24,237 nt of DNA from a virus. Location: positions 1-24,237 of the IMG/VR virus record IMGVR_UViG_3300006920_000244; one strand, written 5' to 3'. Below are positions 9,107 to 24,237 of the stretch, one piece after another. How positions within the stretch are numbered: position 1 is the first letter of the stretch; the number at the start of each line of letters is the position of its first letter. The position numbers and the translations under genes are program-made. The notes below the pieces were generated by a model. The model ran no database searches. It was not told the origin of the DNA and worked only from the letters and a program-made list of their open reading frames with translations.

Positions 9107-11484
9107 TATACCCTTCCCCCTTTAGCAATATGATTATGTTTAATCATTGCTGCTGGCAATACTTCTTCCGCATTTAAAGACTCTTCATAGGTGTAATTGC
9201 TTAAGTAGTTTTCTAACTTATTAATTACGTCATCTGCTGAGGTTCCTACAATCACTAAATTTTGATAGACAGTCCATCCTTGAGGGACAAAAGGAGTACT
9301 GTTTACTCCTGCATATATACTTCCGTATTGCATACCCATGTACATCTTTTGGCCGTAAGGGTCGTTATCCCATAAACCTCTACTAAATTTAGTAGCCCTA
9401 GCATCCCCATTGTTTGCCGTGCCATCATCAGTTATGGTACCACTTACAGCATAATTAGTAATATCACTGATAATATCTGTAGGGTACATCCAATTACTTG
9501 CGACATTTGAAGGACTATTTCCTTTATTAGGAGACATTACGTAGTATTTTCCTACTGCTACAGAAGATAGATCTCCAGGAGCATCATCATTTCTTTCTTG
9601 TATTACCATAACCTTTCTACTTCCTAGCCAGTGCTCAGAAGGAGAAACTCCATATATAGATGTAGAGTCTGTATATCCTTCAAATTTAGAAGTAAACTTA
9701 ACATATCCGTCCGCACCGCTTGTTACTACTTGTGCAAGACTCATAAAGTTTCCAGAAGCATCTGCTCCTTGAGTATTATCTCCTTTGTAGTTGTAAATAA
9801 CTTTTAACGCTTGCCGAAACTGACTTGATGCCTGAAGAGGAGGGAAAGCACTAAAAGTTACTCCTAATTCAAGAGCTTCCTGCCCAGAGACGCTGGTTCC
9901 GTTTGAGAAAGTAATCTTATGAACAGGCAGTCCCGACAACTTTATTTTTCTTTTATTTTCAGGAGAATAAACATACATTTCATTCATTCTTCCGTCTATA
10001 GTTCCTCCTAAAAGGGAGTTATAAGTCCCCCCTGTTCCCGCAAAATCAGCTTGCGACTCATGCCAATACTTCATAGTATCAAATACTTTGTTTTTAATTT
10101 TATCTGATAGTTTTACATCATTAGATTTTAAATAAACATCTGAATTTCTGTAATTATCAATACTAAACTTGGAAGATAAGTATACCCCATATAACTCTCT
10201 GTGTACTCCTTCTACTCCATTATGATTCACATCTTTTTGGAGGTACAGTCTTTGACCTCCGTTAAATATTTGATTTGTATCCACTGCTCCTCTTTCTGTA
10301 GCATTAATTGGTGTATCTAAAAATCCTTTTCCTACACCCTTCGAATCCCAATAATCACTTACGGAACTATTGGAGTAAGTGAACGGATATAAATAATAGG
10401 GGAACGCAGTAGGATCCCCTGAAGTTGCACCACCTCCCTTCAGTTCTCCTCCGAAATCCACAGGATACATGCCAGCTTTTATACTTCCTGAGTCTCCATC
10501 AATATCTACTTTAGAGTAGCATCCTACGGCGTTTGACTGCTGAAAAAAACCATGTATCTTTTCTGGAGTAAATGACCTAGCTTGAGTAATGCCTTTAACT
10601 TGTCTATACATTAACTGGCCCATTGCTGATCCTGGAATAGGGTTGTAGTATGTTAGGGGAAGGGGAGGGTCAAAGTATAGATCCTTTAGAGCGTAATCCT
10701 CCTCACTAGTACCAGTTGAGATTGCGTAAGACGCAAGGAAATCATAAAAGGCTCTAAAGGAGTCTTGTACTTGATAATCGCCATAGGATTGCGCCCCGTA
10801 TCCGAAAAGTCCATCTGGTTGCGTAATGATTGCCCCATCGGCATTCTCACACTCTGCCGATGGTTTGCTTATCCAAACGTCAACCATCCGACCACTATTC
10901 TCATCTACCAATAAAGTGTTATTACCAATAGTGATTACGTTATCTCCCGCGTACTTAGACTGAGTTCCTTCTTTGTAGGGCTTATACCAGTCAAAATACC
11001 AAGATAAAACTCTGTCATAATCAAATCCCCACCTGTTAGTACCGTATCCGTGCCTAATAGCTTCTCCCCCAAATCCTTGGTCAGTGTCATTAAAGTCTAA
11101 AAGGGCTGAAACCTCATCAGAAGCTAGAGTTCCTGATCCGAAATATTTTACATCATCCCAAGCTGATGCTTGAAATCTTCCTGTTACAAAATGGTATTCG
11201 TCTTCAAAAAACGCTCTCCTAGTGTTATTAATGCTTAAACTAGAAGTATCTACTTTTGGACGTGATTGCAGATTAGTAAGTGATTTTTGATTTGTTCTAG
11301 TAAGTTGAGGTCCGTAATCGGCAGAAGCGTTAATAGACTCTCCGCCAAGTGGAAACTCTTCTGAGTTAATGTATCCGTAATTAGGAGTTCTTGGGACAAA
11401 ATCGTCGTGATGCTCTCTTGATATTCTAGCCATGGTATATTGAGGTAATTTGTATACTGCCTCTAAATATCTATACAGATACAT
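9103..11484 (-). CDS. Large protein of unknown function encoded antisense to the baseplate operon
   Basis: A 793-residue uninterrupted frame, the only minus-strand gene in the window. In this AT-rich DNA a frame of that length is very unlikely by chance, and no competing plus-strand gene covers it. The protein is visibly rich in Tyr, Gly, Ser, Asn and Asp, with aromatic clusters such as 'VLSWYFDWYKPYKEG' (residues 159-173), and it has no evident signal peptide or membrane segment. This composition fits a secreted or virion-surface beta-rich protein such as an adhesin or fibre, but I recognise no family. It ends on the CTAG shared with the GH5-like gene. An alternative start at Met18 (base 11433, MARISREHH...) looks more like a natural N-terminus and would leave 69 bases for divergent promoters. 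Neither start has a clear Shine-Dalgarno sequence. Confidence 0.85.
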   Translation of the reverse strand: MYLYRYLEAVYKLPQYTMARISREHHDDFVPRTPNYGYINSEEFPLGGESINASADYGPQLTRTNQKSLTNLQSRPKVDTSSLSINNTRRAFFEDEYHFVTGRFQASAWDDVKYFGSGTLASDEVSALLDFNDTDQGFGGEAIRHGYGTNRWGFDYDRVLSWYFDWYKPYKEGTQSKYAGDNVITIGNNTLLVDENSGRMVDVWISKPSAECENADGAIITQPDGLFGYGAQSYGDYQVQDSFRAFYDFLASYAISTGTSEEDYALKDLYFDPPLPLTYYNPIPGSAMGQLMYRQVKGITQARSFTPEKIHGFFQQSNAVGCYSKVDIDGDSGSIKAGMYPVDFGGELKGGGATSGDPTAFPYYLYPFTYSNSSVSDYWDSKGVGKGFLDTPINATERGAVDTNQIFNGGQRLYLQKDVNHNGVEGVHRELYGVYLSSKFSIDNYRNSDVYLKSNDVKLSDKIKNKVFDTMKYWHESQADFAGTGGTYNSLLGGTIDGRMNEMYVYSPENKRKIKLSGLPVHKITFSNGTSVSGQEALELGVTFSAFPPLQASSQFRQALKVIYNYKGDNTQGADASGNFMSLAQVVTSGADGYVKFTSKFEGYTDSTSIYGVSPSEHWLGSRKVMVIQERNDDAPGDLSSVAVGKYYVMSPNKGNSPSNVASNWMYPTDIISDITNYAVSGTITDDGTANNGDARATKFSRGLWDNDPYGQKMYMGMQYGSIYAGVNSTPFVPQGWTVYQNLVIVGTSADDVINKLENYLSNYTYEESLNAEEVLPAAMIKHNHIAKGGRVY

Positions 11485-11502: not shown

Positions 11503-11946
11503 ATGGCAATTTCAAGCAACACAACAACTTTTGGAAATTTAGTTCCGGGGCCTATGCAGAGACCCGTTACAGGTCAGGATCCTAGATTAGTAGGTTTAGA
11601 GTACCCTGTACCTGTTGACCCTAAAAACGGATACTTCAGCAAGATGTCGGGACTATCATTAGTTAAGTCTAATTTAAGGTCTATTTTAAAGACGGAAAGA
11701 GGCGAGCGTTTTATGAGACCTGATTACGGGTGCAATTTGCGTAAGTTTCTAATGGAGCCTTTAGATGCTGTGACCTTTTCACTGATAAAAGAAGAGATTG
11801 TCATTGCCATACGTAGATACCTTAGCACAGTTTCTTTAGGAAAGGTTCAAGTGTTTGAAACTGTAGATTCTAACTTAAAAGTAAATCTCTTTTGCAACTA
11901 TAGAAATTTAACTTCGACTTCATTTAATGTCGGTGTAAGGATATAA
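11503..11946 (+). CDS. 25: Baseplate wedge protein gp25-like (GPW/gp25 family)
   Basis: A 147-residue protein, close to T4 gp25 (132 aa). The core is unmistakable: 'GLSLVKSNLRSILKTERGERFMRPDYG' spans residues 50-76, matching the family theme I-x-x-x-I-x-x-I-L-x-T-x-x-G-E-R-x-M-x-P-x-[FY]-G. The helix 'IKEEIVIAIRRYL' and the strand 'KVQVFET' follow. In T4, gp25 belongs to the wedge core with gp6 and gp7 and contacts the first sheath ring; TssE is its type VI secretion counterpart. About 45 extra residues precede the core. The usual Glu-Pro-Arg motif after the helix is not visible; this protein has 'RYLSTVSLGKVQV' there. It is the first plus-strand gene after the antisense gene, has no clear Shine-Dalgarno, and its stop overlaps the next start (TAATG). 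Confidence 0.93.
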   Translation: MAISSNTTTFGNLVPGPMQRPVTGQDPRLVGLEYPVPVDPKNGYFSKMSGLSLVKSNLRSILKTERGERFMRPDYGCNLRKFLMEPLDAVTFSLIKEEIVIAIRRYLSTVSLGKVQVFETVDSNLKVNLFCNYRNLTSTSFNVGVRI

Positions 11947-13550
11947 TGGTAGTATTTTCAGGAACGGTTCAATCAGATTTTTTAAAGAAACTTCCTTCTG
12001 AACTGGACAATAAGCAGGGACTCATAAATTTCGCTTCGTCGGACTTTAATTCTTTACGATCTAATCTGTTATCGTATGTAAAAGCTAATTTTCCTTTAGA
12101 TTATAATAACTTTGAAAGCTCTGACTTTGGAATGTTATTACTTGAGATGATGGCAGCGGTAGGGCACATTCAATCGAATAAGTCTGATTACCTTGCTAAC
12201 GAAAACTACATTGGAACGGCACGTAGTAGGGATAGTGTAAAGAGATTGATGGAGCTTATAGGGGTTCGGATGAAGGGTCCTATTGCTGCTGCTGCTAACG
12301 CATCCGTTACATACACTACGAACGCTGTTGCTGCTCCTTCTTCAATGACAGTAGCGGCTGTTGATAGAGTTAAATCAATTACGTCTCCTGAGGATGGAGC
12401 TACGTTAAGTTATACGTTATACAAAGTAAACTCAAACGGAACTGTAGACTTAACCACTCCTTCAGTTGATTTAGAATTTGAAGTTTCTTCTTCAGGCGGC
12501 ACAGTCTTGGTTACGGATGCGGTATTGTTGGAAGGAGCTTTGGTAAGAGAGAGGGGGACCTTTACGTCTCCTGAATCTATCCAATCAATCAATCTAGGTC
12601 AAGCCCCTTACATTGAGAAAAGTGCTCAGGTGTACCTAGAAGGAAATCCTCTAACCGAGGGAATTTATAAGGAAGAAGAAAATATCTACTTCGCCTCCGG
12701 CGGCACAGATAAGGTTTTTCAGGTAACTACTGATGAAACTTTTAGGGCTTCTCTTTTGTTCGGGGATAACAGTATTGGTCAAAGCCCTTCTATAGGAGAT
12801 CAATATACTGTCACTTATCGAGTTGGAGGAGGAACTAGAGGTAATATCGCAAATGGATCTTTAAACATTCCTATAACCATTACTTCCACGCTTGGCGCAG
12901 CTACGGAGCAGATTCAAGGAACCTTGGAAAATACTAGTGTAGGAACTGGAGGAAGAGGTGCCGAGTCTATAGCTCAAGCTAAAAGATATGCGCCACTAGT
13001 GTTTAGAAGTCAGGACCGGCTTGTAACTCTTTCTGATTATAAGGGGTTTGCTAATTTGTTTGCCTCTAACTACGGAAGCACTGGGAAGGTCACAGCCACC
13101 GTTAGACGAGCTTATTCTTCCGCTAATATGATAGACTTGTTTGTATTAGAACGAGCCTCAGACAGGCAACTGAGGCGTGCTACGAAGGAGTATAAGAGAC
13201 AGCTTCTGGCTGAGATACAAGACAAGAAGATGCTTACGGATGAGGTTGTCATCGTTGACGGATTAATCAGAACTTTAGATTTGATAGTAACTTTAACTGT
13301 AGATTCTAAATTCAGAAGAAATGAAGCTCCTTTAATTCAGAGTGCAAGAGCGTCCATTGAAAACTACATGAACATTGATAATACTGACTTTGCGGAGCCT
13401 TTCGTTCCTCAGGATCTTATTAGAACTGTTCTAGAGGATGAAACTAATATTAGATACGCAACGGTTGACAATGTGGAATCTGCAATTACAGTAGGCTTTA
13501 ATGAAATCATACAGCTTAATAACTTAACTGTCAAGGTAAATTACATCTAA
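11946..13550 (+). CDS. 6: Baseplate wedge protein gp6-like (baseplate J family)
   Basis: A 534-residue protein. The N-terminus (residues 33-107) has the gp6 pattern: 'FNSLRSNLLSYVKANFP', then 'NFESSDFGMLLLEMMAAVGHI', then 'ANENYIGTARSRDSVKRLMELIGV', where the family reads N-E-x-F-x-x-T-A and ends in L-G-[YV]. The central baseplate J signature lies at about 266-305: 'RASLLFGDNSIGQSPSIGD', then 'VTYRVGGGTRGNI'. Residues 341-367 ('IAQAKRYAPLVFRSQDRLVTLSDY') match the A-P-x-x-[FY]-x-x-x-x-R-x-V-T-x-x-D-Y motif. In T4, gp6 dimers build the inner ring of the baseplate and tie wedges together. T4 gp6 has 660 residues, so this copy is compact. AAGGA at 11937-11941 stands four bases before the ATG. 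Both ends overlap their neighbours as TAATG. Confidence 0.92.
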   Translation: MVVFSGTVQSDFLKKLPSELDNKQGLINFASSDFNSLRSNLLSYVKANFPLDYNNFESSDFGMLLLEMMAAVGHIQSNKSDYLANENYIGTARSRDSVKRLMELIGVRMKGPIAAAANASVTYTTNAVAAPSSMTVAAVDRVKSITSPEDGATLSYTLYKVNSNGTVDLTTPSVDLEFEVSSSGGTVLVTDAVLLEGALVRERGTFTSPESIQSINLGQAPYIEKSAQVYLEGNPLTEGIYKEEENIYFASGGTDKVFQVTTDETFRASLLFGDNSIGQSPSIGDQYTVTYRVGGGTRGNIANGSLNIPITITSTLGAATEQIQGTLENTSVGTGGRGAESIAQAKRYAPLVFRSQDRLVTLSDYKGFANLFASNYGSTGKVTATVRRAYSSANMIDLFVLERASDRQLRRATKEYKRQLLAEIQDKKMLTDEVVIVDGLIRTLDLIVTLTVDSKFRRNEAPLIQSARASIENYMNIDNTDFAEPFVPQDLIRTVLEDETNIRYATVDNVESAITVGFNEIIQLNNLTVKVNYI

Positions 13551-16500
13551 TGTCGGGTAAGACTTATTTAAGAAATCAAACATACTTTAAGCCAAATTAC
13601 TTTAAAGCATTAAAGTACATTCTTCCTGAGTATCTCTATGAAGATGATATCGAGGGAACCGCTAAGGACGTTGATGTAGTTGACACTTTAATCAACTCTC
13701 ATTTAGATATCGCTAATAACATATCTTCTGTGTTACATGTTAGTGCTGTTTCGCAGGGCTTGTACAGTTCCATAGATTCCTTTAAGGGCATAGCTCCATT
13801 TTTTGTAAAGCAAAATCAACTAACCAACATTACTACTCAAGAGTTCGAAGATGATGTTCTTACTTATTTTGACAGGACGTTTGCTAGTTTTGAGAACTTA
13901 AATGAGTTTGACCAGTTCCTAGAGGATACTTTACTTCCAGCTATAAACTTAAACAATCCTGACTCTACTTACTTTGGAAGTATAGGATCCACCTCCGCTA
14001 TACACAATTATTTAATAAATAAATTATCTTGGATGTATTTTTTAAATACTTCAGGAGATTCTTTTGATCCCTCTTCTTATGTCAAGGGTTTAATAACAAG
14101 TAGTTTATTTGTAGGCAATCCTGTAAGCATTAGTGACGGTATCAAGGGATTGACGGAGTTTGTATGGAGAAACGAAATGGGGGACTACTATCCTTCAAGT
14201 TTGTTTGCCCCTGGATCATCTGCTTCTTTGAGTGGGACACAGCAATTAGATAAGTTAAAGACCTGGGTTGATGTAGCTTACTCCCCTCTTTATGCTGACA
14301 AATCCGACTTTACTGTTAGAGATAGATTTAAAACCTTTTCTGAAAACAGTATAAAGTATACTGATAAGGTTGAAAGTGGTCCGTTCGCCAGATTGATTAG
14401 GTCTTTATCTTTCCTAGCTTTTGACATCAACAATCAAACTGAGGAGATTGCTTCTCTATACGATATAGATGATTGTCCTGATGATTACCTTCCTCTTGTA
14501 GCTCAATTAATTGGTTGGGATTTATATGGGGATGATGCGAATAAATGGAGGTTACAACTAAGAAACGCTGTTTCAATTTATAAAACTATTGGAACTAAAA
14601 AAGCAATTCAACGTACTGTAAATACTGTTTTTCCTAAAGATAAATTTCCCATTGAAAGTAGGATTACTGAGATGTGGGAGTCTTATGTTCCTTATCTAAT
14701 TTACTACGCTTTAGCTACGGAGTCCGATAAGTTTAAAGACTTCCAGACATGGAATCGTGACGAAGCTGAAAACATGGATGTTGAAGGTTACTCAACCAAC
14801 AGCATGGATGAAAACATTAGGATGGCTGTCGATAGGATTCTACTAGAAACAGTCCAGCAGTTCCCTGATAGTTTCTCCCTAACTTATTGGATTGAACAAT
14901 CAAGTTTATCGTTTAATTACAGAGGAAGAGTATATCCTATTCCTCCGTTTGAAGAGTATCCATACTATGTTAACGTAGAGCTAAACCAAGATATGATCAG
15001 CTTTATAGCTGATAGATTAGCTTGCTTTGGAGTTAGACAGGAGTTTGCTTTAGATGTTAGCTCCTACATATCTTCTAATGCATTGAACGTCGATGATGAA
15101 CCTCGTGCAGGGTCATGGCTATTATTTACGTCAGGTTATAATTCTCCTCCAAATCTTGATAACCTTTTATTGAACCTTAACGATAACAGGTTTGATTACG
15201 CTAGCTTGTGGTCAGGTAAATCTTCTCACTTTAAACTTGTTTTAGATGCTTCTGAATTTGATTTTACTAAGAAAGGATTGACTGGCGTTGACTCCGGGGA
15301 TGCTATTGGACTTTTATCTCAGTCTGTGCTTAGGAGTGCTCCTGCTCACTCCATACCTTTAATATCCTTAGAAGTTTCAGGAGAACCTGACTTAGTGTCC
15401 TTGGAGGGTAGTTCCCTTCCTTTAATATACTACGACGATACAGAGATAGATGTTGGTGCTGGAAATAATTACTTCACTAAGGGATTCTCTTTTAACAGTT
15501 ATAAGAGAGGAGTTAATCCTGGGGGAAACGAAATTCAAAGATCTGCTACCGAAAGCTTGGTATCTCCTGAGTTTCTAACAGAATCAGTAGTAGGTGCAAT
15601 ACCTAGAAATACTTCTAGAAGAAGATCCTATGAGAAAGTAATGCCATTTAATGGGTATTACGATAGGACCGGATTTAATATGCCTGTTGGATTTAGCATG
15701 GCATCAGGTTTAAGCGGTATTCCTTTAGGGTTAGTCCCTAGTTCTTTGGGATACACTCCTGTTACTAGCCATGTTAATCTTCCTGCTATCTGGGCGCAAT
15801 GCGAAGGATTGAATTCTACTAATTCTTATTACGAGTATGATGTTAGTAATACTCAAAACGTAAGAGGCATAGCGTCCACGTTCCAAAGTAATTCAGACTA
15901 TACTACTGATCGAGGGCAGCTTCCAGGAATATATGCTTCAATGCATAGAATAAGTGAGAATGAAAAGTATTTAAGATCTTATCTTGTTAGCGGTCCTATT
16001 GCACTTAAAAATCAAATAGCTATTACTACTGATGAAACTGAGTTAAATACCCTACGAGATTTGCTAACAAATCAAACTAGAGGTATACTTCAGTCGTATG
16101 CTAACGGGTTTAGCAACTCTTCTGTAGTAGGATACGCATTCCCTGAATCCACTAGTGATTATTATAACTTTGAGTTTGGAAGAGATTTACACAGGCTTTA
16201 CCATCAGTATAAAGACAACTTCAAGTGGCACAGGTTAAGTCCTGAGGTACAAGAGTTAGATGGTGCAAACTTATTCTCTCATGTTTTTGGACCTTTAGTA
16301 TACAATCATAATTTTGAAAAATTAGGAAACGTAACGGAATTAGTATCAACCTCTTTTGCTTCTCCTGCTAAGATAAGTGTTACTAGCACTCCCTTTACAG
16401 GAGCAGGATCCTTCGCTGCTTCGTCGCCAGAGAGTATGTATTTGGATACTCCTGAAAGGGTATCTTCTGGCATAATAGATGGAGTTGAGCTTGTACTAGC

Positions 16501-17521
16501 TTCAGCTACAAGCGAGAATAATTCTTTTTCTATAATTAAAGTTCCTGGTAGTTCGAAGAAATCGTATGAGGAAACTTTCCTCTTTGATAAAACTTTGCTA
16601 TTAATGAGGTCAGGATTTGGTGCTCTTACAAGGATTAGATTTGATATTTCTAAGTATGAAGAACCTTACAATCATCCTATCTCTAAGAACTTCTTAACTC
16701 CTGATCACGACTTTAAAATTGATTTAAACAGTATTATTAGCAATGATGCGGGAACTTTCTTGGGAGGGCGAAGAGTAGGGGTTTGGATCCACACTAAGCC
16801 TGAGTCGGGAAAAATGTGGACTTACGATAAGTATGGTAAGTGGATCCATCATGATCAACGGGTTAGCAGATCACACTTAATGTCCAGATACGGTCATATC
16901 AAGTCTTTAGCTTATAAGCCAAATGATCCTGAATCTACTAATACTCCTGGTCTAGAGTGTATCGATAATACGGGGACCTCTAGGACTTCTCCAGTGATTG
17001 GATTAGGTGAAGATGATTTTGAGAACTTTGAGATTCACTTTGATACTAGGAACAGAGAGTTAATAGTTCCGAAAGATTACCAAAGCTCTTATGGACAGAT
17101 TCACAGGTTAACTCAAGAGTATGTAGTTGAAGTATTTATGGCTCCAGGATCCCAACCCGATGAATTTATGTTGATTGACAAGGTTAGTATTCAAGACTTA
17201 ACATTAAAAACTTTGTCAGAAGTATTTGCAGCAGGAACTCTATCTGATCCTCTATGCAGCTTAAGTGAATTTAAATACGGTTGTGAGGAGTATAGGGTGG
17301 AGCTTTCTAAGAAAGATTTGTTTGATGTTTTAAAGCATTTTAATAACTTGTCAGGAAAGAATGCTGCGATCCCTTATGCTAGCAGAGACAAAGATAAGAC
17401 TGAGACTATAATGGGACCTCGGGGAGGTTCAAAAGTTAACTATGTGTTTACGGATGAGTTTGTCGGAGGGAGACATTTACTTAATCCTATACTACATTTA
17501 GAGATTATATTCTATTCATAA
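13550..17521 (+). CDS. 7: Baseplate wedge protein gp7-like with P2 gpI-type domain, enlarged
   Basis: A 1323-residue protein directly after the gp6-like gene, as gene 7 follows gene 6 in T4. Residues about 300-368 carry the P2 gpI tail-protein pattern: 'LYDIDDCPDDYLPLVAQLIGW' followed by 'WRLQLRNAVSIYKTIGTKKAIQRTVNTVFP'. The family reads C-x-x-x-x-L-P-x-L-A-x-x-L-G-x-D, then W-R-x-x-[IL]-x-x-A, then G-T-x-x-[AG]-[IL]. In T4, gp7 wraps the gp6 dimer and links the inner and outer baseplate; T4 gp7 has 1032 residues. The extra length lies in the C-terminal part (about residues 600-1323), which is Ser/Asn/Tyr-rich and beta-like. That part includes 'RRVGVWIHTKPESGKMWTYD' and 'EIHFDTRNRELIVP', which resemble carbohydrate-binding or jelly-roll strands but match no family I recognise. 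TAATG overlaps occur at both ends. Confidence 0.8.
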   Translation: MSGKTYLRNQTYFKPNYFKALKYILPEYLYEDDIEGTAKDVDVVDTLINSHLDIANNISSVLHVSAVSQGLYSSIDSFKGIAPFFVKQNQLTNITTQEFEDDVLTYFDRTFASFENLNEFDQFLEDTLLPAINLNNPDSTYFGSIGSTSAIHNYLINKLSWMYFLNTSGDSFDPSSYVKGLITSSLFVGNPVSISDGIKGLTEFVWRNEMGDYYPSSLFAPGSSASLSGTQQLDKLKTWVDVAYSPLYADKSDFTVRDRFKTFSENSIKYTDKVESGPFARLIRSLSFLAFDINNQTEEIASLYDIDDCPDDYLPLVAQLIGWDLYGDDANKWRLQLRNAVSIYKTIGTKKAIQRTVNTVFPKDKFPIESRITEMWESYVPYLIYYALATESDKFKDFQTWNRDEAENMDVEGYSTNSMDENIRMAVDRILLETVQQFPDSFSLTYWIEQSSLSFNYRGRVYPIPPFEEYPYYVNVELNQDMISFIADRLACFGVRQEFALDVSSYISSNALNVDDEPRAGSWLLFTSGYNSPPNLDNLLLNLNDNRFDYASLWSGKSSHFKLVLDASEFDFTKKGLTGVDSGDAIGLLSQSVLRSAPAHSIPLISLEVSGEPDLVSLEGSSLPLIYYDDTEIDVGAGNNYFTKGFSFNSYKRGVNPGGNEIQRSATESLVSPEFLTESVVGAIPRNTSRRRSYEKVMPFNGYYDRTGFNMPVGFSMASGLSGIPLGLVPSSLGYTPVTSHVNLPAIWAQCEGLNSTNSYYEYDVSNTQNVRGIASTFQSNSDYTTDRGQLPGIYASMHRISENEKYLRSYLVSGPIALKNQIAITTDETELNTLRDLLTNQTRGILQSYANGFSNSSVVGYAFPESTSDYYNFEFGRDLHRLYHQYKDNFKWHRLSPEVQELDGANLFSHVFGPLVYNHNFEKLGNVTELVSTSFASPAKISVTSTPFTGAGSFAASSPESMYLDTPERVSSGIIDGVELVLASATSENNSFSIIKVPGSSKKSYEETFLFDKTLLLMRSGFGALTRIRFDISKYEEPYNHPISKNFLTPDHDFKIDLNSIISNDAGTFLGGRRVGVWIHTKPESGKMWTYDKYGKWIHHDQRVSRSHLMSRYGHIKSLAYKPNDPESTNTPGLECIDNTGTSRTSPVIGLGEDDFENFEIHFDTRNRELIVPKDYQSSYGQIHRLTQEYVVEVFMAPGSQPDEFMLIDKVSIQDLTLKTLSEVFAAGTLSDPLCSLSEFKYGCEEYRVELSKKDLFDVLKHFNNLSGKNAAIPYASRDKDKTETIMGPRGGSKVNYVFTDEFVGGRHLLNPILHLEIIFYS

Positions 17522-18633
17522 TGATTACTCAAGGATTTGGAGAAGTATTAACTGATGCTCTTACGGTGAACCCTGCACTTGCTGACCTTCCTTCAGCAAG
17601 TGCAATACTGGACACCTCTAACTACACTTTCCAAGCTATAACCTATGGAAAAGATGCAGACGGGTTTAGAGGTTTTCATTCACACGCAATTATAAACAAT
17701 GCTGCAACAGGGTGGGTTAATGGTGCTATTTCAAACGGAGCGTCCTCTTACGACGGCCAGCTTTTTGGTGTTATAAACTACGCTTATCCTGCAACCGGAA
17801 TTGCTGGTACTGTAAGTTCTTATGTTACTTCAGCTACTTATGTTGAATTTTCCTCGACGTATAACTCAGTACCTAATTATCCAAGTATATCAGATACTCG
17901 ATTAGAAAGAGGCTCTACCTTAAACACTCCTGTATCTTCATTCTATATCCCCAGTGCATTACCAGACTTAGGCCACTATCCTAATGCTGCTGTAGATCCT
18001 CAACTAAGTAGTATTTGGAATAAAGTAGGAGGATATCCCGTCTCTGGAAACACTAAGTATGACTTTTATTACGGAGGCGGAGGAGGTTTAATTCCGTTAT
18101 TTAGTGGTACTCTTAGTAGCTATTATAATGCTAATTCCCTGTTAGATAAAGACGGATACTTAACCATGAATCCTTCAGGATTAGGTCCTTCCGGGCCTGC
18201 TTCTAGGTATGATAACGGACCTATTTTAGTTAGTGCTGCTACCGAAGGGTTTAATGAGTTAATAGGGGTTCCTGTACACCCTTCTGGGGGTCTTATAAAG
18301 TTGTGTTCCACCATTAGAAATGGTGACGCAGTGAGCCTAGCTGCTTTCGGAGGAGTTAAACACATAGGGGTTTATTGCATGGATGTTAAGAAGATGCTAT
18401 CAGAAGGATTATTACCGCCTTATAAATGGGATGCCCTAAATAATATTAGAAAATATAAACTCGTGGCAAAAGTAACCACTATACATGATCCTTTGATGCA
18501 TAGAGACTGTGTTATATTGTCGGGTTTGCAAGATTTACTTAATGTAGGAACATCGGTAAGTTTTGGTACAACAATATATCATTATCTCGACCAAGCAGGA
18601 CCTCTCGTTTCTATAATATTTGATTTTAAATAA
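17521..18633 (+). CDS. Baseplate-associated protein of unknown family (position of T4 gene 8)
   Basis: A 370-residue protein translationally coupled (TAATG) to the gp7-like gene. It has no signal peptide or membrane segment. The first two thirds are rich in Ser, Tyr, Gly, Pro and Ala with a Gly run (YYGGGGGL). The last third is more structured: 'KHIGVYCMDVKKMLSEGLLPP', 'RKYKLVAKVTTIHDPLMHRD', then alternating strands to 'VSIIFDFK'. In T4 this slot holds gene 8, whose 334-residue product binds the gp7 arm. The size and place are comparable, but I see no sequence motif that proves homology. It could equally be a fibre-connector specific to this phage group. No clear ribosome site precedes its ATG, so translation probably depends on re-initiation. 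Confidence 0.7.
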   Translation: MITQGFGEVLTDALTVNPALADLPSASAILDTSNYTFQAITYGKDADGFRGFHSHAIINNAATGWVNGAISNGASSYDGQLFGVINYAYPATGIAGTVSSYVTSATYVEFSSTYNSVPNYPSISDTRLERGSTLNTPVSSFYIPSALPDLGHYPNAAVDPQLSSIWNKVGGYPVSGNTKYDFYYGGGGGLIPLFSGTLSSYYNANSLLDKDGYLTMNPSGLGPSGPASRYDNGPILVSAATEGFNELIGVPVHPSGGLIKLCSTIRNGDAVSLAAFGGVKHIGVYCMDVKKMLSEGLLPPYKWDALNNIRKYKLVAKVTTIHDPLMHRDCVILSGLQDLLNVGTSVSFGTTIYHYLDQAGPLVSIIFDFK

Positions 18634-18634
18634 T

Positions 18635-19252
18635 ATGAATAAATCACTATCAAGTCAATTGGGTATTAAAGGTCATCTCACTATCCACAAGGTAAAGGAT
18701 GATCAGGAAGAGCTACTTTATGACGAAGATAATGTCATTGTATCGGGCTTCGGATGGGCGTTAGCTCATCTTTACGGTAGAGTGGGATCAGACACCATTA
18801 CTGATTACCAAATCGACAGGTTCAAGTTAGGTGTTAGCGGATCTGAAGCACTTCAGGTAAGCTCCACCTCCGATCTTTCTGGATCCCTATCTTCTGCTGC
18901 GGAATACACCTCTACTGGTGATAGCAACCTAGCTGCCGTATCAGGGTATCAATGGCAAAACAATGACGCTCCGGCCACTGCAAGATGGTATGCTAAGATA
19001 CCTTACAGCAAGGTTACAAAGGTAGATGACAGGACTGTAAGGTATACTATATTCATTGATGAGGATTCTTGTAATAACCTTTCTAGACCAGGAGTCTCTG
19101 AGGCTAGTTTAAATGAAATTGGGTTGTTTGTAAAGAATCCAAAAGCAAGTTCACCTGAGACTTCTATTTTAGCAGCTTACAGGTACTTTAGCAATATTAG
19201 AAAAACATCAGATTTCGGTCTAGTGTTTAGATGGACAATATCATTCGGATAA
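18635..19252 (+). CDS. Small fibre- or baseplate-attachment-like protein
   Basis: A 205-residue protein. I place the start at the ATG at 18635, one base after the previous stop, rather than at an upstream TTG (18620) that would overlap by 14 bases; this fits the near-zero spacing elsewhere. The N-terminus 'IKGHLTIHKVKDD' followed by 'EDNVIVSGFGWALAHLYG' reads like tail proteins that begin with a G-x-L strand and an N-x-[IV]-x-x-x-G turn. The C-terminus 'SLNEIGLFVKNP', then 'ILAAYRYFSNIRKTSDFGLVFRWTISFG' follows a pattern frequent in phage tail proteins (E-x-G-L-F, then A-x-x-x-F-x-x-I-x-K-x-x-x-x-x-L-x-x-x-W-x-I-x-F). The exact family and role are unassigned. It sits between the gp8-position protein and a beta-helix fibre, so a connector role is plausible. 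Confidence 0.72.
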   Translation: MNKSLSSQLGIKGHLTIHKVKDDQEELLYDEDNVIVSGFGWALAHLYGRVGSDTITDYQIDRFKLGVSGSEALQVSSTSDLSGSLSSAAEYTSTGDSNLAAVSGYQWQNNDAPATARWYAKIPYSKVTKVDDRTVRYTIFIDEDSCNNLSRPGVSEASLNEIGLFVKNPKASSPETSILAAYRYFSNIRKTSDFGLVFRWTISFG

Positions 19253-19253
19253 A

Positions 19254-22200
19254 ATGTTAAACCCAAGTGACGTGTATGTTGAAGGTGGCTCGGATAAGCT
19301 ATTAGTCTGTTGGACTGATAAGGTTACGAAGTATGACGCTAGCTCCTTTTATAACTGGGAGCAAGACAACCTGCCTTTATATGATTTAGATGAGCGTACT
19401 CATTTAGCTTGGGAGAAGTTTGGTCACCCTACCTCAGCATTGACAGGCATGTCATTTATTGTATCCGCAGACGCTACAGACTCTTGCAACCCTTTGTACT
19501 TCACTACTCTTAGTGCTTGTGTGGCTGCGTTACCAGAGGTTATTAATTATCCTATTCTTGTAGAAGTTGCAAGCTTTGGCAACCTAGGAGGTTTAGAGTT
19601 ATCTAATAAGTCTTTTGGTCCTAGAGGTTCTATTGAAATTGTAAATAGAAACAGTTCTTTTGGATCGCCTACTACCGCTAGTGGTGCGGGTAGCAATAAG
19701 ATGTCTTATGCTACTTTTGATTCGGATTATACAGATTACTCTTTAGTTTCTTCAATTAGCAATGGCAATACCGCTTCTATAGCTGCTGCTCTGACAGCGG
19801 GATCTGCATGTCCTCTGCTAGCTAACGATGCTCAGAATGCTAGACTTCTTACTAAGGGTAGTAATGGGGAAGAAATATTTATTTCTTCGGGTGTTTCACC
19901 TAGTTCGTATGCGGATGCTAGATTTGTAAATCCTTATGTATTCTGTAAGAAAACCGATTTTAATGCCCCTTCTTTAGGTAGATTAACGGCTGCTCTTGCA
20001 AGCACTGAAGCCCCTTGGGATGTTGCGGCTACGAGTGTTACTGTTGCTTCTAAATTTAAGTTTACTCCTTTTGATAAGGGTAGAACTGCTGAGAAAGATA
20101 CTTATGACGTGAGCACCGTAAACCACTTATCTGGCGATGAGATAAAATGGGGTGGCTTAAGTAACAACAGTCCTATGACTGCTTTTGCTTACTTTAATAG
20201 CCTAGATTATATTAAGGTTAACAATTGCAATGGTCCTGTCTATATTAGAAATTTCAATGTGGATAGTCAACATGCGAAGGACAGGGGAATTGAAGTAAAA
20301 AACTCTAAGGTTAATTTAGAAAGATGTTCAGTCTCTAGAGCTAACAAGGCAGGATTACATGTAGATAGCTCTGAAGTTAATTTATTAAGAGGGTTTGTTT
20401 CATTTAGAAACTACGAATTAATTAACCTAGTGAGGACAGGTGTGCCTTTTGCAGACAAGAGAGAAAGCTACGCTAGTCAAGACTCTTACGGTGCAGGAAT
20501 TTACGCAATTAATTCTATTGTAAATATACAGTCTACTTATTCTAGAGATATTGAAAAGTCTTCTCAAGCTTCGGCTGCTCCTTACTATGCTAATTGGGCA
20601 GCGGCAGCAGGAGCATCAGGCATTCCTCTTCCTTCCTTAGAAGCTATTTACTGCTTGTCTAGAAACGACATAGGCATCCATGCTGTCAACTCTACCTTAA
20701 CAGGCGGAAGAACTGAGCTAAACGGAATTTCTCCTACCTCCTGGAATGACGCTATTGCATTAACTTCTGAGCTTAATACTGAAGCCGGTATACGATTAGA
20801 AAATAGTGTTGTAGATTATAGTGGTAGATTACTACTGGATGGAAATTATTTTGGTCTTGATTCTGCTAACTCAAAGGTTTTCGTCGATTCGGTAGCAGCT
20901 AGGTATAATCAAGCAACAGGATATAAGTTTGTAAATTCTGAGTTCGTATACAATAAAGATTTGTATGCCGGATATCTTATGGGAGTATCTCAGGAAGTAG
21001 GGATTGAGACACATTTACTTTCGCAAGTTTTAGGTGCTTCAAATAACAAGGATATAGAATGTTATAACTCAACCATATCTCCCTTGTATGCGAGTTCTAT
21101 GCCTAGCCTTTATCAAGCGGTTTACACTGCTTCCTCTTTTGGCAAGTCTGATAAGACAGTAGGCAGCGATGGCACTGTCTTGCTTCCTTCTATTGAAGCT
21201 ACTAATAACTCTAAATTAGATTTGATCGGTGCTCATATTGATAGGTCCGAAATAGAAGATGATTTAACAGGAAATTCAGAAGCTTGCTACGGAGCAATGA
21301 TTAAGGCAACCGACAATTCAACAGTTGTTTGTAGGGGAACTAAGCGATATGCTAACGTCATGTTGGGTCCTGATAGTAGGGCGAAGTCACATCCTTTAGC
21401 CGCCGTGTATGCTGGGAACAATTCTAAGGTAGCATTTCAAGGCCCTACTGTCATAGCTATGGTGGGTGTTGATGCTTTGGCTGAGGGGAACTCGATTATT
21501 GATTTCGGACCTCACAGAAATACTGAAAATGAATTACTAGTATCCTCTTTTGATTTATCTTCTGACTCGTCAAACCATAGTAGAGTTGAACTGCACTCTG
21601 TAAGAGCATGTCTAGTCGCTAATCAACAATCTAAAATCAGTATGACTGATTTAGGTAGTTATACTACTTTATATGAAAATAGTCCTAGCGTTAGTGGCCG
21701 AGATGATACTTACACTTATCTACTTAGCGATCAAAAAGAACTTTGCGTAAGTGGTGGATGGATGCAGTTATATCCTAATGCAAACTTAAGCAGAAGCCCG
21801 ACTCAAATTCCTTACAAGCCAGCAAACCTTCCCGCTAAAACTGTAAGTGCAAGATATGCTTTTGCATCGGAAGCGAGTATTCTAGGGTACAGGTATCTAA
21901 ACGCTTACGCCAGTCTTGACGCTACTCCTTCTGCTGTTACAACAGGTGGAATGTCTGTAAGGGCGGTTGGAGATAGTTTAGTAGAGGCTACTAATGTTCA
22001 CTTCCCTTGTGGATGGCCTAACTGCTCTGGTGTAGTATACGACTTCGATGGTACGGCTCCTCTTCTGGGTCCTGTATGTAGCAGGTTGCACATTTGGAAT
22101 ATTGCCGATACTTCTTTACTGAAGGCTTCCTACTTATCTATATCGGGAGTTCATCCAGTTGATGCTCCTTATCACGGTCCTTCGGGAACTTGGAGTGATC

Positions 22201-22775
22201 ACTATGGTGCCCCTAGTACAACTCCTGATACTAGCGGACTATCTATTTTAGATTACTATGGAGTGAATACGGCTAATCCTTTCTTAGGCAGACCCTCTGT
22301 TCAAAATCTTGGAGCTTTCCGATTGTACTTCTCTGTTGACCCAGTTGCTAAATTCCTTGATGCTGCTGGAGGATCTTTGTCAGGAGTTATTCCTCAGGTA
22401 TTCTCACAAGGCTATAGTTTTTCCGGTGCTGTATCAGCCACTGATAACCCTTTCTACGGAGCTAGCGCAAACTACACCTCTCTACTTAGAAAGAAACTTG
22501 TCAATGGTGTTGAAACTAATACTTGGGTGGCTTCTGGATTTTACTATCCTTCTGAAATGGTATCAAATCCAGATACAACCTTGGTAATCGTAGATGATTC
22601 TGGGGCTAACGCATTTGCAAACGCGAAACATAATTCAGTTGACAAATCCTTAATAGGAAAGCGTGTTAATATCTTCTACCCTACTAAGGGATTTGGAGGC
22701 GACTCTGATACTGTTTCACAATACGGACAAGGACTATTATCAGTTAATAACTTCGATCTTAAGAAGGATGACTAA
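19254..22775 (+). CDS. Large beta-helix tail fibre or tail spike protein
   Basis: A 1173-residue protein. Residues 33-54 ('YNWEQDNLPLYDLDERTHLAWE') form a distinctive N-terminal element, also recognisable in the next gene and probably used for docking. Residues about 95-135 begin a beta-solenoid (PILVEVASFG, GSIEIVNR). From about 325 to 800 the protein is a ladder of short strands with a recurring [NDH/Q]-S-x-[VIL] step near residues 349, 371, 420, 479, 517, 539, 561, 652, 688, 723, 746, 775 and 793. Many steps are about 22 residues apart, the usual size of one right-handed beta-helix coil. The last 350 residues are mixed, with no recognised enzyme motif. Such proteins serve as host-binding or polysaccharide-degrading spikes. 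No pectate-lyase or endosialidase residues were identified. The stop overlaps the next start (TAATG). Confidence 0.78.
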   Translation: MLNPSDVYVEGGSDKLLVCWTDKVTKYDASSFYNWEQDNLPLYDLDERTHLAWEKFGHPTSALTGMSFIVSADATDSCNPLYFTTLSACVAALPEVINYPILVEVASFGNLGGLELSNKSFGPRGSIEIVNRNSSFGSPTTASGAGSNKMSYATFDSDYTDYSLVSSISNGNTASIAAALTAGSACPLLANDAQNARLLTKGSNGEEIFISSGVSPSSYADARFVNPYVFCKKTDFNAPSLGRLTAALASTEAPWDVAATSVTVASKFKFTPFDKGRTAEKDTYDVSTVNHLSGDEIKWGGLSNNSPMTAFAYFNSLDYIKVNNCNGPVYIRNFNVDSQHAKDRGIEVKNSKVNLERCSVSRANKAGLHVDSSEVNLLRGFVSFRNYELINLVRTGVPFADKRESYASQDSYGAGIYAINSIVNIQSTYSRDIEKSSQASAAPYYANWAAAAGASGIPLPSLEAIYCLSRNDIGIHAVNSTLTGGRTELNGISPTSWNDAIALTSELNTEAGIRLENSVVDYSGRLLLDGNYFGLDSANSKVFVDSVAARYNQATGYKFVNSEFVYNKDLYAGYLMGVSQEVGIETHLLSQVLGASNNKDIECYNSTISPLYASSMPSLYQAVYTASSFGKSDKTVGSDGTVLLPSIEATNNSKLDLIGAHIDRSEIEDDLTGNSEACYGAMIKATDNSTVVCRGTKRYANVMLGPDSRAKSHPLAAVYAGNNSKVAFQGPTVIAMVGVDALAEGNSIIDFGPHRNTENELLVSSFDLSSDSSNHSRVELHSVRACLVANQQSKISMTDLGSYTTLYENSPSVSGRDDTYTYLLSDQKELCVSGGWMQLYPNANLSRSPTQIPYKPANLPAKTVSARYAFASEASILGYRYLNAYASLDATPSAVTTGGMSVRAVGDSLVEATNVHFPCGWPNCSGVVYDFDGTAPLLGPVCSRLHIWNIADTSLLKASYLSISGVHPVDAPYHGPSGTWSDHYGAPSTTPDTSGLSILDYYGVNTANPFLGRPSVQNLGAFRLYFSVDPVAKFLDAAGGSLSGVIPQVFSQGYSFSGAVSATDNPFYGASANYTSLLRKKLVNGVETNTWVASGFYYPSEMVSNPDTTLVIVDDSGANAFANAKHNSVDKSLIGKRVNIFYPTKGFGGDSDTVSQYGQGLLSVNNFDLKKDD

Positions 22776-24237
22776 TGGCTACTAAATACTACGACACTAA
22801 TTACACTTTTATCAACCCTGTTAGATACTTTAAGGCTAACGATCCCTATTACTTTGAAGTTGACAACATTCCAATTAAGCAATTAGAAGAGAGTAACAAT
22901 TTTTTAAAGGATCAGGTAGATGGTCTTCTAGATGAAGTTAACAAGACTGAAGAAACCGCTGAGATTGATAGAAGTGGATTTAGCGAACTTAAACCTTACG
23001 TTGTAGGTAATGACAGGGTAGTAAGGGTAAAGCCTGGACGTTACACTTCTCGTATAAATAACGCTTACTCCTTAACACCCTTGCAAGTTGTCGATCAAGT
23101 GTTCGGGTTAGGTAATGCTGTAAGTGGAGAATCTAACACTTGGCAAACTGAGACCAATAGAGGTTCCTATGTATCAGGAATACTAAACGAGTTTACCAGA
23201 GGAAGAGAAGGTATTGCTTTAAATATGAATGGTCTTTTTGAAAGATCTTTTGTATGGCCTATTGACACTGAGGATGGAGAAAGCCTCACAACTCCTAATC
23301 TACTTAACGTAACCAATAATTTAGATTACGGGGGCAATTTAGCAAGGGATGATAAGCCTTTATACCCTAACGTCATTGGAGCGTTAATAAAGAGTATGAC
23401 GGAGGATTTAACTAGAAATCTAACTCTTGTTAAGAATTTATATGCTCCTACTACCCCTCGTTTTGGAGGGCAACAAGGTAGAACTGAGTCTGAGTTTATA
23501 AAGAGATGGAGAGGAGCTATTAGAACTTCTGTTGTAGATGTTCCTGATGAGCTTCAAATAGAGATTCCTCCGTTTGTTGGTGATGACTTCTTTTACACTA
23601 ATGAGGCAGGAGATAAAACTAATGTAGATTCTAATGTAAGAATTGATTTAGTATTTATATATTCAAAAGCTGTCGATGAAGTGGATACTACCATCGCAAA
23701 GTTCGACTCTCTTGGAAATGTAGAGCCTCCTAAGACCACGCCGGTTCTGGGAGTTCTTAAAGGTGCTGGCCTAGGAGTATCTAAGAAAACTTCAATTAAC
23801 AATCTGGGTACCGAAGACACAGTTGATTTAACTAGTTTAGACGGTATGCCTTTAATGCTGGCTAACCCTGGTGATCAAACTGGAGATCACATAGGATTTA
23901 CAACTTCTGCCATGGGAGTTATCAGAGGTTCATTCCCCTCCCCTGATGACTTACTTAACCTAGCTCCTGTTCTTTCTGAAAATTTAGAAACAGATTCTTA
24001 TGCTTTGATAGGACAAACTATCCTGCCCGTAGCTTATATTTTAGTTGAAAAGGGTAGTGAGCTTGTGTCAAATGAATTTATTACCAAAGACCATGTTCTA
24101 GACATTAGACCCTTCTTTAGAACAACAGAGCTTGCATATAACGAAAGAGCAGGACTTGCAGCGGCAACTCCTCAAATTTCTATAGCTAACCCTGTCGTGA
24201 CGGAAGCTCATTTGGAGATGGCTAAATCAGAAATTTA
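22775..24237 (+). CDS. Virion structural protein, N-terminal 487 residues (partial, runs off the window)
   Basis: An open frame starts at the ATG at 22775, overlapping the previous stop (TAATG), with AAGGA at 22764-22768 six bases upstream. It has no stop before the window ends. I translated it through to the last complete codon at 24235. Residues 13-46 ('INPVRYFKANDPYYFEVDNI', then 'PIKQLEESNNFLKDQV') contain the same E-x-D-N-[LI]-P-x-x-x-L-[DE]-E element as the N-terminus of the beta-helix protein before it. Later text includes 'PLYPNVIGALIKSM' and 'LQIEIPPFVGDDFFY', with mostly polar and Pro/Asp-rich stretches. The residues 'VRIDLVFIYSKAVDE' and 'LDIRPFFRTTELAY' look like the folded core. 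No known enzyme motif is seen. A baseplate or fibre-base role is inferred from location and the shared N-terminal element. Confidence 0.8.
   Translation, partial: MATKYYDTNYTFINPVRYFKANDPYYFEVDNIPIKQLEESNNFLKDQVDGLLDEVNKTEETAEIDRSGFSELKPYVVGNDRVVRVKPGRYTSRINNAYSLTPLQVVDQVFGLGNAVSGESNTWQTETNRGSYVSGILNEFTRGREGIALNMNGLFERSFVWPIDTEDGESLTTPNLLNVTNNLDYGGNLARDDKPLYPNVIGALIKSMTEDLTRNLTLVKNLYAPTTPRFGGQQGRTESEFIKRWRGAIRTSVVDVPDELQIEIPPFVGDDFFYTNEAGDKTNVDSNVRIDLVFIYSKAVDEVDTTIAKFDSLGNVEPPKTTPVLGVLKGAGLGVSKKTSINNLGTEDTVDLTSLDGMPLMLANPGDQTGDHIGFTTSAMGVIRGSFPSPDDLLNLAPVLSENLETDSYALIGQTILPVAYILVEKGSELVSNEFITKDHVLDIRPFFRTTELAYNERAGLAAATPQISIANPVVTEAHLEMAKSEI

What the first reader, a model, noticed from the sequence alone, without database searches (positions are those of the whole stretch)
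19350..22912. Shared N-terminal docking-like motif in two consecutive fibre/structural genes
The beta-helix protein has 'YNWEQDNLPLYDLDERTHLAWE' (residues 33-54, bases 19350-19415). The following gene has 'YYFEVDNIPIKQLEESNNFLKD' (residues 25-46, bases 22847-22912). They share Y-x-[WF]-E-x-D-N-[LI]-P-x-x-x-L-[DE]-E in otherwise dissimilar proteins. A common N-terminal element in adjacent virion genes suggests a reusable adaptor that fixes different proteins to the same baseplate site.
Basis: seen in the sequence. Interest (0 to 1): 0.52.

Follow-up and report, generated by a model that had tools for sequence, protein, structure and literature searches.

The report
Shared N-terminal adaptor of phage fibres
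Two neighbouring genes of an uncultured virus of bacteria, one a spike-like and one a fibre-like protein, start with the same short, very strictly conserved piece, which most likely plugs different host-contacting proteins into the tail, a useful but not unprecedented design.

Summary
P0001 (A, 1173 aa, residues 33-54) and P0002 (B, residues 25-46) carry the motif at the stated coordinates. It is homology, not chance. It is the most conserved 20-residue stretch in both families, and it is the only part by which sliding-window profiles of one family recognise the other. In the predicted models the helix starts at the same motif residue in A (40) and in B (32). A is directly upstream of B in 92 of 96 distinct B genes with enough upstream sequence. 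The element also fronts unrelated proteins in other phages, including an S74-chaperone tail fibre, a 1604-aa collagen-like fibre and a 310-aa structural protein of Salmonella phage Arash. A is a beta-helix tailspike-like protein; B may end in a lectin-like domain (weak). A reusable N-terminal adaptor is the best reading. That both proteins sit on the same baseplate site is untested. T4 gp10/gp11/gp12 are a known precedent for sequential baseplate genes built on a common unit. New sequence family of a known kind.

The parts
19254..22775 (+). gene A: 1173-aa beta-helix, tailspike-like protein
   Evidence: AlphaFold2 model pLDDT 83.3, pTM 0.86; Foldseek best PDB hit is the Acinetobacter phage AP22 gp54 tailspike, E 7.9e-5
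19311..19418 (+).
   Evidence: predicted coil 1-38 and helix 40-55
22775..24237 (+). gene B (cut by the window end; 856 aa in L003, which is 100% identical over residues 1-487)
   Evidence: model of the L003 protein pLDDT 69.5, pTM 0.53; weak lectin/fibre-knob likeness of residues 506-830
22811..22915 (+).
   Evidence: predicted coil 1-31 and helix 32-58
18620..19252 (+). gene E (210 aa), directly upstream of A; its N-terminus is related to that of gene D in relatives; candidate anchor or neighbour
   Evidence: PHROG 5417 (unknown function) E 5e-5; hhalign D against E 6.5e-24
17521..18633 (+). gene D (370 aa), gp8 position; candidate anchor or neighbour
13550..17521 (+). Tail_P2_I-containing 1323-aa wedge protein (gp7-like position)
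   Evidence: Pfam PF09684, E 5.9e-7
11503..13550 (+). gp25-like and gp6/J-like baseplate wedge genes (11503-11946 and 11946-13550)
   Evidence: Pfam GPW_gp25 E 1.9e-11; PHROG 219 baseplate wedge subunit E 5.5e-36

Best explanation
A and B share a homologous N-terminal adaptor of about 35 residues. Its first half (V-x2-[FY]-x5-Y-x-aromatic) is an extended strand; its second half begins with a D-N-x-P helix cap and runs into a short helix with hydrophobics at +4, +7, +14 (and partly +11, +18) counted from the D, which most likely forms a short coiled coil that brings three chains into register. The extended strand is the part that binds a conserved partner on the tail periphery, most likely a baseplate wedge protein encoded just upstream. 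The body that follows (a beta-helix spike in A, a fibre with a possible lectin-like end in B, collagen-like or S74-chaperone fibres in other phages) makes contact with the host and can be exchanged behind the adaptor. Shown here: homology, position, conservation, attachment to unrelated bodies, and in-register predicted secondary structure. Inferred: trimer, docking, the partner, and a common site.
For: The element is the most conserved 20-residue window in both families: 0.946 against a mean of 0.588 in A (58 full-length sequences) and 0.964 against 0.595 in B (57). In a wider alignment the 7 invariant B columns over 83 rows are Met1 and six that lie in the element (P24, Y25, V29, D30, N31, P33). 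Y at -5, an aromatic at -3, and D, N and P at 0, 1 and 3 are invariant in A (60 segments), B (152) and the third class C (19) alike, and hydrophobics at +4, +7, +14 recur in all three (segments were anchored on D-N-x-P, so D, N and P are so by selection, and no carrier was lost by this: 0 of 285). A and B elements of one phage are only 0.21-0.39 identical (median 0.30, n=92), so the shared residues were kept while the rest diverged. The helix starts at the same motif residue in both models. The element fronts a 602-aa tail fibre with an S74 chaperone (PHROG 910 E 4.1e-42; PF13884 E 5.1e-11) and a 1604-aa collagen-like fibre. It lies N-terminally in 285 of 285 distinct carriers. A sits directly upstream of B in 92 of 96 distinct B genes with at least 4.6 kb upstream. 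These loci were nearly all seeded on B, so the A copy was not selected for.
Against: No partner or contact is shown. pLDDT of the element is about 53-76 (B) and 55-69 (A). Position +11 is not hydrophobic in A, so the heptad is imperfect. In Arash the carrier gene does not lie in the tail-fibre cluster. In class C phages the element usually occurs once per genome, so a shared site for two proteins is not general. The reverse profile search (B against A) was not clean.
Confidence: 0.66

Rival explanations
1. The element is only a trimer-starting segment: the D-N-x-P cap and short coiled coil register three chains, and each body docks by other, unrelated surfaces.
For: The heptad-like pattern and the helix starting at DNxP; fibres commonly need N-terminal registration (recalled).
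Against: The strictest conservation lies before and at the start of the helix (Y at -5, aromatic at -3, D, N), which a coiled coil alone does not need.
Confidence: 0.18
2. The two genes arose by duplication of a common N-terminus, and the copies now bind each other or successive neighbours (a chain D-E-A-B), not one common baseplate site.
For: D and E are a second neighbouring pair with related N-termini (hhalign 6.5e-24); third and decayed copies lie next to A and B in L213, L157, L308, L104 and L171; branched tailspike complexes exist in CBA120 (PMC8825819, abstract).
Against: L209 has B without A, and most class C phages have a single carrier, so the element does not need a partner copy.
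Confidence: 0.12
3. The element is an assembly or processing signal (for example a protease or chaperone recognition site) and not a structural dock.
For: Short, N-terminal and strict.
Against: Its motif runs into a patterned helix, which such a signal does not need; no protease-site search was made.
Confidence: 0.03
4. Chance or composition.
For: The window pair alone is weak (E 0.083).
Confidence: 0.01

Closest known systems
T4 gp10/gp11/gp12 (and gp9) peripheral baseplate trimers
   Same: Sequential genes; gp10, gp11 and gp12 can be superimposed and are thought to share a primordial fold, and the N-terminal 200 residues of gp10 are 23% identical to gp9 (PMC3004832, passages read). A and B stand after gp25-, gp6- and Tail_P2_I-like genes.
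   Different: The unit here is a 35-residue segment visible by sequence; no family or PDB sequence link to T4 gp9-gp12 was found.
Tailspike baseplate anchor domains of phage CBA120 (TSP4-N)
   Same: An N-terminal part that anchors tailspike bodies to the baseplate (PMC8825819, abstract and outline).
   Different: There the anchor is a 335-residue set of folded domains; here it is a short strand plus helix carried by both neighbours.
Conserved N-terminal anchors of Klebsiella phage receptor-binding proteins
   Same: Conserved N-terminus with variable C-terminal bodies (recalled; PMC6872550 seen in a search listing only).
   Different: No sequence comparison was made.
Salmonella phage Arash gp199 and Vibrio phage D148 306-aa protein (class C)
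   Same: The same element near the N-terminus (residues 9-43 and 12-44 by the motif profile), found by motif-only tblastn.
   Different: A different body, one carrier per genome, and 180-188 kb phages in which whole A and B have no match.

Membership tests
Reusable N-terminal adaptor of receptor-binding proteins (functional kind) | lies at the N-terminus | tested here: met
   281 of 285 distinct carriers start it by residue 45, 4 of 285 at 46-80
Reusable N-terminal adaptor of receptor-binding proteins (functional kind) | homologous across otherwise unrelated bodies | tested here: met
   window control; 273 bodies fall in 7 blastp clusters at E 1e-4
Reusable N-terminal adaptor of receptor-binding proteins (functional kind) | bodies include recognised fibres or spikes | tested here: met
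   S74 fibre in L093, collagen-like fibre in L235, beta-helix of A
Reusable N-terminal adaptor of receptor-binding proteins (functional kind) | binds a tail or baseplate partner, the same for different bodies | not testable with these tools
   no complex prediction offered; no solved relative by sequence
T4 gp9-gp12 peripheral baseplate trimers | gene position after the wedge genes | tested here: met
   gp25-, gp6- and Tail_P2_I-like genes upstream; T4-like head protease, major head protein and sheath downstream in relatives
T4 gp9-gp12 peripheral baseplate trimers | sequence or fold relation to gp9-gp12 | tested here: inconclusive
   no PHROG, Pfam or PDB sequence match; no significant Foldseek match for B
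Beta-helix tailspikes (gene A) | beta-helix body | tested here: met
   model pTM 0.86 with repeated short strands; 12 PDB matches at E <= 0.001, several of them phage tailspikes, but with low TM-scores of 0.12-0.14
Beta-helix tailspikes (gene A) | trimer and polysaccharide-cleaving activity | not testable with these tools
   monomer model only
H-type lectin fibre tip (gene B C-terminus) | lectin sandwich fold | tested here: inconclusive
   Helix pomatia agglutinin Z 4.6, rmsd 3.9, 97 aligned; pyocin fibre knobs Z 3.0-3.3, rmsd 3.5-4.0, 77-84 aligned; all below Z 5

The most novel reading that the evidence does not exclude
The element is a portable plug for a conserved tail socket shared by very different large phages (marine T4-like phages with the A-B pair, and 170-188 kb phages of the Arash and Vibrio D148 type). 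Two different receptor-binding proteins compete for, or alternate on, the same site of the baseplate within one virion, so that one phage displays spikes and fibres on one type of socket.
Probability: 0.25. Interest if true: 0.62.

Novelty: new member of a known kind. Interest (0 to 1): 0.45.

Why it matters
The element is a sequence tag for finding tail fibres and spikes in uncultured phages whose fibre genes have no database family (A and B have no significant match in Pfam or PHROGs, and none in 50,697 phage records). If the docking reading is right, it marks the cut point behind which host-contacting bodies are exchanged, and it makes the question of which wedge protein holds the fibres in these phages directly testable.

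Tried and rejected
Chance: rejected by shuffles and window controls. Known family: P0001 and P0002 gave no significant Pfam or PHROG match; a weak PHROG 17578 hit over B residues 15-66 (E 0.13) and PHROG 25279 over residues 3-72 of a class C protein (E 0.079) were not followed. Solved relatives by sequence: no credible match for B, A or C (the best were E 1.9 for B and E 0.12 for A, taken as chance). Fold of B: Foldseek found nothing at E <= 0.001 in the PDB or BFVD; VIA-align gave only Z < 5. Achromobacter phage Motura (E 6) was rejected: the protein under the match lacks D-N-x-P, and the whole record had no match to the motif profile. A Capybara microvirus hit (E 0.9) was taken as chance. 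The A-type motif alone found no phage record, nor did the small-B form. Whether the A and B elements co-vary within a phage was not tested.

Rows left out: A5 used 82 of the 99 non-redundant B rows plus L003 in place of L002 (17 dropped: seven class C, the rest fragments or to shorten the list); A6 used 66 of 71 A rows plus P0001 (5 dropped: L023, L004, L043, L047, L177). itself dropped ORFs cut by a locus end, L075-L077, L216-L234 and the class C loci L078-L096. One search skipped L001 and L216-L234 (pieces around earlier matches). Loci overlap in part (several come from one contig), so the pair count was repeated on distinct B sequences.
Full report
WHAT WAS CLAIMED AND WHAT IS THERE. The window is a 24,237-base IMG/VR virus record. 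The DNA pattern for E-x-D-N-x-P occurs only in these two places in the window, 0.04 being expected. Pairwise BLASTP of the two proteins is weak, E 0.083, so the pair alone would not settle it.

HOMOLOGY. A scan of viral contigs with B brought 73 loci. Nearly all carry A and B side by side, each with the element. A profile of 47 distinct A N-termini finds the B proteins among 1737 ORFs at E 2e-4 to 0.47, ahead of every unrelated ORF (best 0.96); the B profile finds A at E 0.002 to about 5.7 with some unrelated ORFs mixed in; profile-profile comparison gives E 3.7e-5, probability 71, over 36 columns. In the control, profiles of every 40-column window of A (106 windows) were run against 83 B proteins, and of B (70 windows) against 67 A proteins: only windows overlapping the element score (best medians 13.5 and 11.2 bits), and the next-ranked windows have median 0. 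The element is also the most conserved 20-residue window in each full-length family: 0.946 (mean 0.588, 58 sequences) and 0.964 (mean 0.595, 57 sequences).

HOW FAR IT REACHES. Whole A and B have no match in 50,697 phage records. The B element alone, as a 37-residue query, finds Salmonella phage Arash gp199 (310 aa, annotated structural protein; E 4e-3) and three Vibrio phages (306 aa; E 2e-3), in both types near the N-terminus; a class C query finds the same four records at E 1e-7 to 3e-7 and no others. Scans from these brought loci L078-L096 with a third type of carrier, here class C, V-D-N-R-P-L. In that 1.4-Mb genome the motif profile matches only the A and B genes of this contig. The element is thus a feature of phages.

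POSITION AND BODIES. In 217 loci (3057 ORFs of 80 aa or more) 285 distinct proteins score at least 20 bits; 281 start the element by residue 45, four at residues 46-80, none later; 11 weaker hits follow, from 12.8 bits down. These loci were mostly fetched with the motif or with B, so the count is not a frequency. After removal of the element, 273 bodies of 150 aa or more fall into 7 clusters at blastp E 1e-4 (140, 109, 9, 9, 3, 2, 1). Two carriers are unmistakable fibres: in L093 the element (residues 8-41) precedes a tail-collar fibre domain and a C-terminal S74 chaperone (PHROG 910 E 4.1e-42; PF13884 E 5.1e-11), and in L235 it precedes a 1604-aa collagen-like fibre (PHROG 3904 and others; the repeats inflate these scores).

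THE PAIR. Among distinct B genes with at least 4.6 kb upstream, 92 of 96 have a motif-bearing A gene within 60 bases upstream. The four exceptions are a broken A (L023), a diverged second beta-helix gene lying between (L157), a second B copy (L213) and a phage without A (L209); of 16 distinct class C genes none has A. Seeded on A instead, 13 of 14 A genes with at least 300 bases downstream, in the 76 loci new in that step, are followed by a motif-bearing B; the exception is followed by the diverged beta-helix gene. Searched whole, five contigs of the A-B group have exactly two carriers each; of eight class C phages including Arash and Vibrio D148, seven have one and one has two; Motura has none.

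ANATOMY. Aligned on D-N-x-P, A (60 segments), B (152) and C (19) share a hydrophobic residue at -14 (0.97-1.00), mostly one at -11 (0.85-0.99), an invariant Y at -5, always an aromatic-type hydrophobic at -3, D, N and P at 0, 1 and 3, and hydrophobics at +4, +7 and +14, with +11 and +18 partly so. The full-length models put the start of a helix at the residue after D-N in both: A helix 40-55 after coil 1-38, B helix 32-58 after coil 1-31. Confidence there is low (block pLDDT 53-76), as would be expected of a segment ordered only in a trimer or a complex; that is inference. A and B elements of one phage are only 21-39% identical (median 30%, 92 pairs), so the shared residues stand out.

WHAT THE BODIES ARE. 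A is a beta-helix (pTM 0.86); its best PDB matches are the AP22 gp54 tailspike (E 7.9e-5) and other tailspikes and beta-helix glycosidases, with low TM-scores. B has no significant fold match; residues 506-830 resemble, weakly (Z 2.7-4.6), Helix pomatia agglutinin and pyocin and AP22 fibre knobs, which fits a fibre with a lectin-like end but does not prove it. Upstream are gp25-, gp6- and Tail_P2_I-like wedge genes, downstream in relatives a T4-like head protease, head protein and sheath: the genes stand where T4 has gp8 to gp12 (the T4 gene order is recalled).

MECHANISM. The most likely reading is an adaptor: an extended strand that binds a conserved tail partner, a helix cap, and a short coiled coil that registers a trimeric body. 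Homology, position, conservation and modular use are shown. Trimer, docking, partner and a common site are inferred. A pure trimer starter, or a chain in which neighbours bind each other, remain possible. The latter gains some weight from a second pair: genes D and E just upstream have related N-termini (hhalign 6.5e-24, probability 99.6; 76 D and 96 E sequences), although in the window itself D lacks the first part.

KNOWN OR NEW. Sequential T4 baseplate genes gp10, gp11 and gp12 share a fold, and gp10 and gp9 share N-terminal sequence (PMC3004832, passages); CBA120 TSP4 has an N-terminal anchor for tailspikes (PMC8825819, abstract). The kind is therefore known. This family of elements matched no library searched at a significant level. 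I found no paper on it, but my paper searches were by topic and by the Arash name, and a motif cannot be searched for in them, so I do not claim that it is unpublished.

Noticed in passing
17521-18633 and 18620-19252 (and L213 6343-7835): The two genes upstream of A (D, gp8 position, and E, about 200 aa) have related N-termini in relatives (G-x-[LV]-E-[IV] ... N-[VLM]-[IV]-x-x-G), a second neighbouring pair; hhalign E 6.5e-24. The window's D lacks the first part.
   Followed up: partly
L213 565-2652; L157 6674-10585; L308 8826-11954; L104 4191-5966; L171 9928-12624: Extra copies beside A and B: a second full B-type carrier in L213, and diverged elements in a second beta-helix-like gene (L157, L308) or in the gene after B (L104, L171).
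   Followed up: partly
L312 (QCKN01000003.1): A 130-kb contig filed under the Prochlorococcus single-cell genome AG-409-P03 carries the E-A-B cassette and a T4-type major head protein: a likely phage of, or caught with, Prochlorococcus.
   Followed up: partly
7025-9106 (+): A 693-aa ORF between tail genes whose N-terminal part reads to me like a glycoside hydrolase barrel (by eye, from memory); no Pfam match.
   Followed up: no
9103-11484 (-): A single 793-aa ORF on the opposite strand, between baseplate genes on the + strand.
   Followed up: no
L168 6953-7429, L213 96-602, L171 12612-13058 and others: A small lipoprotein-like gene (signal ending in LLASCS or similar, then glycine-rich) follows the carrier genes in the phages with short B proteins.
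   Followed up: no
L235 7402-8535 (-): A TnpB-like ORF (377 aa, by eye) sits next to the 1604-aa collagen-like fibre gene that carries the element.
   Followed up: no
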